The notes: generated by a model not told the origin, from the letters alone. A stretch of 64,000 nt of DNA from Prevotellaceae bacterium (GCA_021204865.1 JAJPYQ010000041.1:1-64000); one strand, 5' to 3'; positions 32,531 to 37,034 are shown, counted from the stretch's first letter. Program-made: numbers and translations.

Positions 32531-34027
32531 TTATCTTGAGGCAGGGCGGAACTTCAGCCAGTCGCGGCTGAAGCGCCCGTATGCGTTTAGCCCCGACGAG
32601 TAGCCGAACAGCACACGCCTCAGGCGGTAGCTGCGGTAGTGGGACAGCACGCCAAGGAAGGAATTCACCGATGCGTCCATCCGTGCGTAGTCTGTGTAGC
32701 GGTTTGCCTTCAGCTTCTGGCGGATGCGCCTCAGTGAGTCGTTCGAGATATAGGTGCGGAAGGGCTTAATGTACGCGCCGAGGAACTGCACCCCGTGCCG
32801 CGCGTCCGCTATGTGAAGCTTCCTTTTGTTCAGGTTCAGGCGCAGGTTCTCGCTTAGGAACTCGTCTATCCGCGGCACGAGAGAGCGCAGCCACTCCCTG
32901 CTCTGCGCCACCACGTAGCAGTCGTCCACGTATCGCCCATAGTGTCGGCAGCCCAAGGTGCGCTTCATGAACTGGTCGAAGGCGTTCATGTAGACGTTGC
33001 TGAACAGCTGCGACGACAGGTTGCCTATGGGCAGCCCGCAGCCCGCGGCGGAGTGGAATATGCTCTTGTCTTTGGGCAGCTGCTCCCAGTCCTCTGGTTT
33101 TCCCAGCAGGCGGCAGTTCTCGGTGGGGTCGGTGTTCACGATGCTCTCCAGCAGATAGTCAGCGAACTCCATGTCTATCATCTCTCCCCACCGCTTCCCC
33201 TCTTTGTCCGAGGCGTGGCAGCTCATCTTGCCAAGCGTGTCGCGGCACAGCCCCAGCAATACCCCCCTGTCTATGTGCATGAAGTAGCCGCTTATGTCGA
33301 GCTTCATCACGTAGGCAGGGCGTGTGTGGTTGGCAGACACGCTGCGTATGTGGTGCCTCAGCCGCTCTATGCCATAGTGTGTGCCTCGTCCTTTTATGCA
33401 GCTGTAGCAGTCCGCCACGAAAGTTCGCTCGAACAGGCGGTGCGTGTAGTTGTAGAAAAGGTGGTGCACTATGCGGTCGCGGAAGTCGGCTGCGAACACC
33501 TCCCGCATCTTCGGGTCGTGGATTACGAAGCAGGTGGAGGGCAGCGGGCGGTACGAGCGTGAGTACAGCTCGTTGCGGAGGGTCACGAGGTTGTCCTCCA
33601 GCCGGTATTCAAACGTCAGCTGGTACGTCCTGCCCCTTTTGTGCCTCCTTGCGTCCTTGTAGGCGCGGTAGAGGTCGACGAGCAGCTGCTCCCGTGTTAA
33701 CTTGAAAGGGCGGGCGGCGGAGGGAGGCGCGGATGGCGGTGTAAGTTCTGAAACGGCGCGGACGGAGAAGCCGTTGTTGCGGTTGTTGTTGTTCCGGTTG
33801 AAGTTGCCACTGTTGAAGTTGAGGTTGTACGCGTTCTGCGTATTGCTCTCGTTGGGTGTGGCACTCCAATAGTTGCCGTTCTCTCCAGCGTTGTTAAGCG
33901 ACGTCCCGTTACGCCAGCCAGCGGCGGGAACGCTTCTTAGGCGGCCATCTATACTGCAAGGCGGCGAAGGGCATTCTTCCTGCGATTTGCCGCCAGGCTC
34001 ACTCTTATTTACCATGTCTGTCTCCAT
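32531..34027 (-). CDS. Diversity-generating retroelement reverse transcriptase (ORF also spans the TR; true start uncertain)
   Basis: YVMKLDISGYFMHID, LPIGNLSSQLFSNVYMNAFD (DGR-type IGxxxSQ), YVDDCYVV, QFLGAYIKPF. Confidence 0.93.
   Translation of the reverse strand: METDMVNKSEPGGKSQEECPSPPCSIDGRLRSVPAAGWRNGTSLNNAGENGNYWSATPNESNTQNAYNLNFNSGNFNRNNNNRNNGFSVRAVSELTPPSAPPSAARPFKLTREQLLVDLYRAYKDARRHKRGRTYQLTFEYRLEDNLVTLRNELYSRSYRPLPSTCFVIHDPKMREVFAADFRDRIVHHLFYNYTHRLFERTFVADCYSCIKGRGTHYGIERLRHHIRSVSANHTRPAYVMKLDISGYFMHIDRGVLLGLCRDTLGKMSCHASDKEGKRWGEMIDMEFADYLLESIVNTDPTENCRLLGKPEDWEQLPKDKSIFHSAAGCGLPIGNLSSQLFSNVYMNAFDQFMKRTLGCRHYGRYVDDCYVVAQSREWLRSLVPRIDEFLSENLRLNLNKRKLHIADARHGVQFLGAYIKPFRTYISNDSLRRIRQKLKANRYTDYARMDASVNSFLGVLSHYRSYRLRRVLFGYSSGLNAYGRFSRDWLKFRPASR
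33746..33930 (-). repeat. DGR template repeat (TR), 185 bp
   Basis: Aligns without gaps to 35094..35278; 20 differences, all at T on the plus strand (A on the TR coding strand). Confidence 0.95.
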
Positions 34028-34104
34028 CTATGGTCAGGTCGCCTCTCTTTAAGCATTGAATTTACTATGCGCTCTGCCGGCAGCCTTGGCCGCCGGCATT
34101 CCGG

Positions 34105-34488
34105 CTATGTCGTCGGCGCCTCCTCCCCGCGCCCGCTGTTTTGCTTGTTTGTCACGCTCTTCTCCCACGCTGCCATCTGCCTCGACATGTCCTGCGTGCG
34201 CTCCGCCAGCTCGGTGTACTTCCCCTCCGAGATGTGGCGCATGTCGCACAGCAGCCGCACATACACCTGCGCCTCCAGCAGAGTCTCCCGCATACGTGTT
34301 ATTATCGGAGCCTTGTTCTTCGTGCGGTTGGCTCGGTATATCAGGATGATTATCTCCATCACCTTCGCCCTCAGGTCCGTGCCTATGGAGTAGCGGCAGT
34401 CCCGGGGCAGGTTGGGCAGCATCTTGCTCACCGACAGCAGCAGCGAGTAGGTTGCCTTGTAGATGGGCAGGTTTGTGTATATAGCCAT
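34105..34488 (-). CDS. avd: DGR accessory variability determinant-like four-helix bundle protein (Avd)
   Basis: 127 aa helical protein, YKATYSLLLSVSKMLPNLPRDCRYSIGTDLRAKVMEIIILIYRANRT, located between target and TR/RT. Confidence 0.87.
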   Translation of the reverse strand: MAIYTNLPIYKATYSLLLSVSKMLPNLPRDCRYSIGTDLRAKVMEIIILIYRANRTKNKAPIITRMRETLLEAQVYVRLLCDMRHISEGKYTELAERTQDMSRQMAAWEKSVTNKQNSGRGEEAPTT

Positions 34489-34494
34489 CTCGCC

Positions 34495-34983: not shown

Positions 34984-35002
34984 AAAATCTCAAAAAAATC
35001 GA

Positions 35003-35048
35003 CCCGCTTCGCGGGAATTCCAGCGTCGGGCTTTTAATGCCCGACGCT
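35003..35048 (-). other. Two hairpins downstream of the VR; the distal one looks like a terminator
   Basis: AGCGTCGGGC-ATTAAAA-GCCCGACGCT (10-bp perfect stem), then CCCGCGAAGCGGG-TCGATTTTTTT on the minus strand. Confidence 0.75.
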
Positions 35049-35090
35049 AATAAATCAAATGAATCAAATGAATCAAACACGCTTCGCTTT

Positions 35091-37034
35091 TCATTCTGAA
35101 ACGGCGCGGACGGAGAAGCCGCCGTCGCGGCGGCTGTCGTTCCGGCGGAAGTAGCCACTGCTGAAGTTGAGGTTGTACGCGTTCTGCGTACTGCTCTCGT
35201 CGGGTGCGGCACTCCAATAGTAGCCGCTCCCTCCAGCGTAGCAAAGCGACGTCCCGTTACGCCAGCCAGCGGCGGGAAGGAAGATGCTGTTCCCGTTCGG
35301 TCCCGTAACCTTGTAGCCCGCGTGTCCGCCCACAGTTGTCCACGTGCGCTGGCACTTGTTTATCAGTTCGTCTATCTCGTTCGCTGTGGGCAGCCTCCAC
35401 GTGCCGCCCCAGTTGGAGCACGCCGCGTCGTAGCTTGGGTCGCCCGCTATGCTGCCCATGCTCACATTATATGTCCTGCTGTTGTCCTCATCGTACGATG
35501 ACTTCGTGCTTGTCTCTCCCCAGGCATAGTAGTTGCCATACTCCGAAGGAGAAGAAGCCCCAACGTTGCAGGTTGCCCACTTCACGCTCAGCCCCAGGTC
35601 GACATACTCGTGCCCGTTGATGTAGCCGCTGGTTGGCTTGCTCGTCTGTGTTGCGGTGGTCGTTGTCTGCGTTGTCTGCGTTGTCTGCGTGGCTTGTGTG
35701 GTCGTCTGGGTCTGCTGCTCGCTCTGCGTCTGCTGCTGTGGGGCAGGGGCTGCGACCTCTTCCTCCCGCTTCTTCTCAGGCTCTTGCGTCTCCTCCTCAT
35801 CGGGCGCTATCACTTGGCTCGTGAGGCGGTCGGGGATTGCGACGGTGTCCACATACACCGTGTCCACCCTTGCAAGCTCCCCATCTGAGGGCTTGGGCTT
35901 GCGCAGCAGGACGGCAGCCGCCACTATGCCTATCGCCACAAGGCAAGCCACGGCTATCGTGACAGGGGAGAGGAGAGACTTCCCCTTGGGCTTGGGCGTA
36001 GGCTGCACTGGCTCCGCGGGCTTCGTCTCCACAGTCTCCGCCTCGGGCTCTGACACCACGCCCTCAGGAATATCGCTCACCACCTCCGCCACTATAGGCT
36101 CGTCACCGCCAAGCATGGTCTCCTCGCCCGTGGGGGCGTGACGGTTGAGCACCTCAAGCACCTCGGCCGCCGACTGCGGGCGGTCCACCATCATTGGAGC
36201 CATACACTTCTTAACCAGCTCGATAAGCCACTGGGAAACACCTTTGCCTTGCAGCTCGGCAGCGGGGAAGCCCTGGTTGAGGATGTGCGAGGCGTCTGGT
36301 GGACGCTGCCCGCTGAGCATCTTGAACATAGTGCCGCCCAAGGCATAGATGTCCATCGTCACGGGGAAGCCCTGCCCCTCCTGGTAGTCGCTCTGCTCGA
36401 GTGGCGCATAGCCCTTAGTGCCTTTTCCCACCATTGTGCTGCTCTCCGGCTCGCCGTTCTCGTCGTATTGCTTGGAGAGGCCGAAGTCAATCAGCACAGC
36501 GTGCCCGTCACGCAGCATGATGTTCAGCGGCTTGAGGTCGAGATGCAGCATGCCGTTCTTGTGCATGAACCCGAGGGCGGAGCATATCTCGCGGGCGTAC
36601 TTCACGCACTCCTCCTCCTGGAGCCTTCCCCTTTGGGCGATATGGTCGTCGAGGCTGCCGCCGCTGATGTAGTCCATGGCGTAGTAGACAGTGCCGTTTG
36701 TCTCGAACGCCTCAAGCACCTTCACTATGTTCGGGTGCCTCAGCCGTGATAGGTTGCGAGCCTCGCGGACGAACTTCTTGCGGTAGTCCACGAACAAGCC
36801 GTTCTCGCTTCCGCTGGTCACCGAGGTGCCAGTGCGGCCGTTGATGTCGCGCATGAAGAACTCCTTCACGGCGACGTTGAGATCCAGCTCCCCCAACGCT
36901 CCTGGCACACGCATCGTTGCGAGGTAGGTGATGCCGAACGAGCCCTGCCCCAGTGCCCTCACTATCTTGTACTGGTATGATTTTCCCTGAAGCACCGCCC
37001 CCTGAGGCAGCCCCTTGATAATGTTCTCGCTCAT
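35091..37034 (-). CDS. DGR target: transmembrane Ser/Thr protein kinase with C-terminal FISUMP/C-type-lectin-like variable domain
   Basis: GQGSFGITYLA, VAVKEFF, HLDLKPLNIML, DFGLSKQY; TM SPVTIAVACLVAIGIVAAAVLL; Thr/Gln linker; YVDLGLSVKWATCNVGA...FLPAAGWRNGTS...FSVRAVSE. Confidence 0.93.
   Translation of the reverse strand: MSENIIKGLPQGAVLQGKSYQYKIVRALGQGSFGITYLATMRVPGALGELDLNVAVKEFFMRDINGRTGTSVTSGSENGLFVDYRKKFVREARNLSRLRHPNIVKVLEAFETNGTVYYAMDYISGGSLDDHIAQRGRLQEEECVKYAREICSALGFMHKNGMLHLDLKPLNIMLRDGHAVLIDFGLSKQYDENGEPESSTMVGKGTKGYAPLEQSDYQEGQGFPVTMDIYALGGTMFKMLSGQRPPDASHILNQGFPAAELQGKGVSQWLIELVKKCMAPMMVDRPQSAAEVLEVLNRHAPTGEETMLGGDEPIVAEVVSDIPEGVVSEPEAETVETKPAEPVQPTPKPKGKSLLSPVTIAVACLVAIGIVAAAVLLRKPKPSDGELARVDTVYVDTVAIPDRLTSQVIAPDEEETQEPEKKREEEVAAPAPQQQTQSEQQTQTTTQATQTTQTTQTTTTATQTSKPTSGYINGHEYVDLGLSVKWATCNVGASSPSEYGNYYAWGETSTKSSYDEDNSRTYNVSMGSIAGDPSYDAACSNWGGTWRLPTANEIDELINKCQRTWTTVGGHAGYKVTGPNGNSIFLPAAGWRNGTSLCYAGGSGYYWSAAPDESSTQNAYNLNFSSGYFRRNDSRRDGGFSVRAVSE
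35094..35278 (-). repeat. DGR variable region (VR), 185 bp
   Basis: Near-identical to TR 33746..33930, with all differences at TR adenines; lies at the 3' end of the target gene. Confidence 0.95.

What the first reader, a model, noticed from the sequence alone, without database searches (positions are those of the whole stretch)
33746..35278. All TR/VR differences fall on template adenines (20 of 20 by hand alignment)
TR 33746-33930 and VR 35094-35278 align ungapped over 185 bp (offset 1348). On the plus strand every difference is a T in TR: about 14 T>C, 4 T>A and 2 T>G, i.e. A>G, A>T and A>C on the coding strand. This is direct evidence of past adenine-specific mutagenic homing.
Basis: seen in the sequence. 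Interest (0 to 1): 0.92.

Follow-up and report, generated by a model that had tools for sequence, protein, structure and literature searches.

The report
Mutagenesis template hidden inside enzyme gene
This gut bacterium carries a protein-diversifying retroelement, and unusually the RNA template it mutates, with a folded RNA in front of it, lies inside the reading frame of the enzyme that copies it, an arrangement kept across a whole lineage of related elements.

Summary
TR 33746-33930 and VR 35094-35278 differ at 20 positions, all adenines of the TR coding strand (54 A of 185; P=1e-12): 14 A>G, 4 A>T, 2 A>C. The locus is a real, chromosomal diversity-generating retroelement (DGR): kinase-FISUMP variable protein, MutS-like accessory protein, Avd, TR and reverse transcriptase (RT), with five more VR copies elsewhere in the genome. 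That part is ordinary.

What is unusual is the anatomy. TR lies in frame inside the RT gene, with no start codon between TR and the RT core. Among related DGRs with a local ATG, the TR frame is near random (59/47/47). Where no local start exists it is in frame and open in 12 of 12. The window's clade is 12/12 in frame. Upstream of TR lies a structured RNA with strong covariation, distantly like Rfam RT-7 RNA. In this clade most of it is also read as RT leader, and the presumed RT start codon sits in a predicted hairpin.

Best reading: one RNA serves as both RT mRNA and mutagenesis template. TR overlap with the RT ORF was catalogued in 2012 (group 3); I found no description of conserved translation through it. 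Translation is inferred, not shown.

The parts
33746..33930 (-). Template repeat (TR), coding strand minus; 54 A in 185 nt, 19 AAY codons; in frame with the RT ORF
35094..35278 (-). Variable region (VR), 3' end of the kinase-FISUMP gene, ends at the codon before the stop
32531..34015 (-). RT gene from the conserved start ATG 34015 (an alternative ATG lies at 34027); leader + TR + linker + RT core. RT core from about 33703 matches the BPP-1 DGR RT 8ub7 (phmmer 2e-36, Foldseek 6e-19)
33928..34015 (-). Leader of the RT ORF (MVNKSEPGGKSQEECPSPPCSIDGRLRS), overlapping the structured RNA; conserved more at nucleotide than codon level
33704..33745 (-). 42-nt linker between TR and the RT core, no ATG/GTG/TTG in frame
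33940..34097 (-). Structured RNA element 5' of TR: P0 34097-34088/34085-34076; GTAAATTCAATG 34065-34054; P1 34043-34037/33946-33940 (one A.C mismatch in the window); P2 34034-34030/34015-34011 (holds the start codon); P3 33994-33989/33965-33960
   Evidence: Rfam RT-7 partial match 34049-34105
34105..34488 (-). Avd accessory protein (127 aa)
   Evidence: NCBIfam DivGenRetAVD 4.1e-14; PHROG Avd 5e-22; Pfam bAvd 1.7e-8, below its cut-off
34495..34983 (-). MutS domain I-like accessory protein (162 aa, MSL type)
35091..37034 (-). Variable protein gene: Ser/Thr kinase (aa 22-292) + C-terminal FISUMP/Lcl_C domain carrying the VR
35022..35048 (.). GC-rich inverted repeat (AGCGTCGGGC...GCCCGACGCT) 46 nt past the VR; found after 4 of 6 VRs; probable target-site hairpin
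35003..35015 (-). Terminator-like stem with T-run after the VP gene (not above the number expected by chance)

Best explanation
A chromosomal DGR whose template lies inside the RT coding sequence. The gene order is VP(VR)-MSL-Avd-[structured RNA-TR-RT]. The RNA element 5' of TR, the TR and a short linker are read in frame with RT, so one RNA would be both RT mRNA and mutagenesis template. RT with Avd (and probably MSL) would copy the TR with errors opposite adenines, and the cDNA would replace VRs of at least six FISUMP genes. Shown: adenine-only TR/VR differences; multiple VRs; conserved in-frame openness with no local start; covarying RNA structure 5' of TR. Inferred: that ribosomes translate through TR, that template and mRNA are the same transcript, that the RNA element recruits RT-Avd, and that the TR-encoded tail is a passive disordered extension.
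For: TR/VR. Frame: 12/12 loci without a local start are in frame and open, against 59/47/47 with a local ATG; the window's RT clade is 12/12 in frame in a tree whose sister clade has mixed frames, and a second cluster of 7 is also in frame. Stops between the MVN start and the RT core (leader and linker) in 8 relatives: 0 in frame, 25 and 43 in the other frames. 108 of 120 homologous proteins carry the TR segment, 98 without Met in the linker, with varied linker length. Relatives keep VP-MSL-Avd-TR-RT order and most keep adenine-only VRs. RNA: 95.9% of cells paired, 92 double-change cells against 29.7 shuffled, slid controls collapse; the window's own fold matches. Leader evolves like RNA: synonymous differences 0.17 against 0.55 in RT. 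AlphaFold: residues 1-86 pLDDT below 50, RT core confident.
Against: No transcript, ribosome or protein data. The loci share ancestry, so the frame counts are not independent events. Protein databases favour long ORFs (the DNA-based test, does not depend on them). 59 of 153 DGRs with a local ATG also happen to be in frame. The window's P1 has one mismatch. The P2 pairs that hold the start codon hardly vary, so they give no covariation support.
Confidence: 0.8

Rival explanations
1. Ordinary DGR: RT starts after TR at an unrecognised non-ATG codon, and the in-frame ORF through TR is a by-product of TR having been copied from a coding region.
For: TR is naturally open in the VP frame; most related DGRs have TR just upstream of a separate RT ATG; the leader is not under codon-level constraint.
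Against: No ATG/GTG/TTG between TR and the core; frame and openness are kept in the whole clade while sister DGRs drift; no stops in frame but many in the other frames, leader and linker included; conserved MVN start.
Confidence: 0.17
2. The RT ORF is a decaying pseudogene or assembly join of a VR/TR copy with RT.
For: Broken versions exist in two species of the genus: G011 (RT frameshifted and shortened) and G050 (RT N-terminus missing).
Against: Window RT is intact, with DGR motif LPIGNLSSQ and YVDD, and 108 protein clusters have the same fusion.
Confidence: 0.02
3. The adenine-only pattern is chance or an unrelated A-directed mutator such as a deaminase.
For: 14 of 20 changes are A>G.
Against: A>T and A>C also occur; 0 of 131 non-A changed; the same in other VRs of the genome and many relatives.
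Confidence: 0.01

Closest known systems
Bordetella phage BPP-1 DGR
   Same: RT, Avd, TR, adenine mutagenesis, VR at the 3' end of the target gene, hairpin after VR; RT fold matches 8ub7
   Different: In BPP-1 a structured spacer 3' of TR recruits RT-Avd and lies between TR and brt (PMC12875486). Here TR to RT core is 42 nt, the covarying RNA lies 5' of TR, and TR is inside the RT frame. The hairpin loop does not fit the phage GRNA 4-nt rule (PMC3240598).
DiGReF structural group 3 DGRs (Schillinger 2012, PMC3521204)
   Different: That paper catalogued overlap with annotated ORFs; [quoted passage not shown]
Rfam RT-7 RNA (RF03028)
   Same: Same layout: 5' hairpin, GUAAAUUCA, long outer stem with inner hairpins, just 5' of TR in L053 and L054
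   Different: Scores 30-39 bits against a gathering score of 116.8; here the element overlaps the RT reading frame
DGRs with kinase-CLec targets (cyanobacteria PMC7517822, Thiohalocapsa PMC10907252)
   Same: Protein kinase domain with a C-terminal VR domain; in cyanobacteria also several targets spread over the genome
   Different: FISUMP-type tail in a Bacteroidales genome

Membership tests
Diversity-generating retroelement | TR/VR pair with adenine-specific differences | tested here: met
   20/20 on A, P=1e-12
Diversity-generating retroelement | DGR-type RT | tested here: met
   Best solved match is the BPP-1 DGR RT: phmmer 2e-36, Foldseek 6e-19; LPIGNLSSQ and YVDD present
Diversity-generating retroelement | Avd or other accessory protein | tested here: met
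   NCBIfam DivGenRetAVD 4.1e-14, below its curated cut-off; PHROG Avd 5e-22
Diversity-generating retroelement | VR at the C-terminal end of a CLec/FISUMP-type target | tested here: met
   VR ends at the stop codon of the kinase-FISUMP gene; Lcl_C and FISUMP matches are below their curated cut-offs
Diversity-generating retroelement | Mutagenic retrohoming activity | not testable with these tools
   needs culture or deep sequencing
BPP-1-type cassette | Spacer of about 140 nt (length from memory) between TR and a separately started RT | tested here: not met
   42 nt, no start codon in frame; no synonymous dip at the RT start
DiGReF group 3 | TR overlaps the RT ORF | tested here: met
   TR inside ORF 32531-34027
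Rfam RT-7 RNA | Score at or above the gathering threshold | tested here: not met
   39.3 bits against 116.8, E 9e-8, partial
MSL accessory protein (MutS domain I) | Match to Pfam MutS_I | tested here: inconclusive
   16.1 bits against cut-off 20.6; 42 of 45 homologues match at E up to 0.1, best 2e-4; Foldseek top 17 all MutS but E 0.08-0.4
TR translated as part of RT | Peptides or ribosome footprints across TR | not testable with these tools
   only comparative evidence

The most novel reading that the evidence does not exclude
The RT mRNA is its own mutagenesis template and is self-regulated: RT-Avd binding to the 5' RNA element, which holds the RT start codon in hairpin P2, switches a molecule from being translated to being copied. 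Template choice would then favour the RNA that made the enzyme, and RT output would be limited by feedback.
Probability: 0.3. Interest if true: 0.75.

Novelty: new variant of a known kind. Interest (0 to 1): 0.55.

Why it matters
In the studied DGR (BPP-1) the template RNA and the RT coding sequence are neighbouring parts of one locus. Here a lineage of gut Bacteroidales and Kiritimatiellae DGRs appears to have merged them, so one sequence must serve as RNA structure, mutagenesis template and protein. This gives a natural test of whether template and mRNA can be the same molecule, of where the RNA signal for RT-Avd lies (5' rather than 3' of TR), and of how translation and reverse transcription avoid each other. 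It also offers a probable role, DGR template RNA, for Rfam RT-7-like RNAs.

Tried and rejected
Synonymous-site dip at the start of the RT core, as sign of a BPP-1-like spacer hidden in RT: none found. Leader conserved as a peptide: rejected, codon-position pattern is RNA-like. Folded function of the TR-encoded tail: AlphaFold gives pLDDT below 50 for residues 1-86. Rfam at gathering threshold on 14 relatives: nothing. Solved-structure sequence search for the 162-aa protein: nothing convincing. The paper behind RT-7 RNA (NAR 2017 gkx699) was not held, so its own comment on DGRs is unknown to me. Ten paper searches found no description of translation through TR; large subscription surveys, such as the NAR 2018 DGR classification, could not be read.

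Full report
OBSERVATION. The two intervals align ungapped over 185 bp at offset 1348 with exactly 20 differences: 14 T>C, 4 T>A, 2 T>G on the plus strand. On the coding (minus) strand all 20 fall on the 54 adenines of TR and none on the other 131 positions, P=1.0e-12. All are at codon positions 1 or 2, mostly in AAC codons.

WHAT THE LOCUS IS. On the minus strand lie: a 647-aa Ser/Thr kinase with a C-terminal FISUMP/Lcl_C domain whose last codons are the VR; a 162-aa protein like MutS domain I, fitting the known MSL accessory, listed as PF01624 in PMC10053308; Avd; and an RT whose best solved match is the BPP-1 DGR RT. Neighbouring genes look like ordinary housekeeping genes (read by eye), so the element is probably chromosomal. 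The genome holds five more VR copies of this TR, on contigs C9 (two), C53, C57 and C60. Their genes are a second kinase-FISUMP protein, FISUMP proteins beside Sel1-type repeat ORFs, and one copy whose frame is shifted by a 1-nt insertion (domains of these copies read by eye). A GC-rich inverted repeat with the same stem follows four of the six VRs, as expected for the target-site hairpin known from BPP-1 (PMC3240598), though its loop differs from the phage GRNA rule.

TR IS INSIDE THE RT FRAME. TR is in frame with the RT ORF 32531-34027 and with the VP frame. The next ATG/GTG/TTG after the ones at 34027 and 34015 is GTG 33586, inside the conserved RT region. A protein search with this ORF gave many full-length relatives at 55-96% identity; 108 of the best 120 clusters carry the TR segment, 98 of them without Met in the linker. 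Most share the start MVNK-like and a leader ending FSIDD...PAAG.

TEST WITHOUT GENE-CALLER BIAS. I fetched 240 loci by RT core only, from genomes, metagenomes and viral contigs. In 187 non-redundant loci with a TR motif within 330 nt upstream, those with an ATG between TR and RT core have TR frames 59/47/47, near random. Those with no ATG/GTG/TTG there are in frame and open through TR in 12 of 12. In an RT tree of 223 rows the window falls in a clade of 12, all in frame and open (SH-aLRT 88 for the clade): the window, seven Bacteroidales loci and four that are from, or group with, Kiritimatiellae. The sister clade of 144 rows is mixed. A second cluster of seven loci (L061, L062, L063, L065, L066, L079, L134) is also all in frame, so the arrangement may have arisen twice. 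In eight Bacteroidales members (the window included) the leader and linker have 0 stops in frame and 25 and 43 in the other two frames. The loci are related, so these are not independent events; linker lengths differ and still keep frame.

THE RNA ELEMENT. Upstream of TR, fused and unfused Bacteroidales DGRs share a folded element. In 29 loci, mostly unfused, two helices have 95.9% of cells paired and 92 cells changed on both sides (29.7 in shuffles); covariation score 0.753 against 0.318, and it collapses when partners are slid. In six fused loci the outer stem P1 and inner P2 and P3 are predicted, and the window folds the same way on its own. P2 pairs the presumed start codon ATG 34015 with an upstream ACCAT; its pairs hardly vary, so this rests on prediction. 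In the fused clade the element from the 3' side of P2 on is translated as the RT leader. Its codon positions differ almost equally (0.23/0.25/0.30, RT core 0.31/0.20/0.58) and same-residue codons rarely differ (0.17 against 0.55), so it is held as RNA rather than as peptide. The linker shows the same weaker trend; the RT core shows no dip. Rfam gives a partial, sub-threshold match to RT-7 RNA (window E 9e-8; L053 E 6e-6), so the element looks like a diverged relative of that family.

RELATIVES ARE REAL DGRs. Fused relatives keep the order VP-MSL-Avd-TR-RT where the contig reaches far enough; in the second cluster Avd was not detected by this search. Twelve fused loci have 19-28 TR/VR mismatches on A with 0-2 elsewhere, and L099 and L106 are similar. 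Five others (L058, L059, L070, L076, L080) show mixed counts in the ungapped comparison, probably because of indels.

MECHANISM. Shown: adenine-only differences, several VRs, conserved open frame, covarying RNA. Inferred: one RNA is both RT mRNA and template; RT-Avd recognises the 5' element; the TR-encoded tail is disordered (AlphaFold pLDDT below 50 for residues 1-86) and tolerated. In BPP-1 the recruiting structure lies 3' of TR (PMC12875486). Here only 42 nt separate TR from the RT core, so the signal is probably 5' of TR and/or in the short linker.

KNOWN OR NEW. DGRs, kinase targets, dispersed VRs, MSL and overlap of TR with RT ORFs (group 3 of PMC3521204) are known. I found no description of a lineage in which the template and its structured RNA are read in frame as the RT N-terminus, but the literature held here is incomplete.

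Noticed in passing
L047 (G011:C6), 6024-7126: A broken relative: RT fused in frame to a FISUMP segment that looks like a VR rather than an Asn-rich TR, with a frameshift and a missing middle of RT; perhaps a template overwritten by a variable copy.
   Followed up: partly
L044 (G050:C4), 8648-9667: TR joined directly to the middle of RT, the RT N-terminal region missing; deletion or assembly join.
   Followed up: no
P0045 (589 aa protein): MSL protein fused straight to leader-TR-RT, with Avd missing; could be a deletion derivative or an assembly chimera.
   Followed up: no
L010 (G000:C53), 452-637: VR with a 1-nt insertion that shifts the frame of the FISUMP C-terminus.
   Followed up: partly
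window 37419-38092 (-): Two overlapping small ORFs that look by eye like a HicA/HicB-type toxin-antitoxin pair beside the kinase gene.
   Followed up: no
window 31508-32435 (+): Panacea-domain (SocA-like) antitoxin gene (Pfam 1.1e-16) overlapping a small ORF with apparent membrane segments, a possible Panacea toxin-antitoxin pair.
   Followed up: no
window 37179-37372 (+): Bacteroidales-1 RNA (suggested 6S RNA), Rfam RF01693, 137.7 bits.
   Followed up: no
L060 1277-1361: Long near-perfect hairpin that scores as mir-279 in Rfam, upstream of a DGR in a Prevotella MAG; a chance family match to a strong stem.
   Followed up: no
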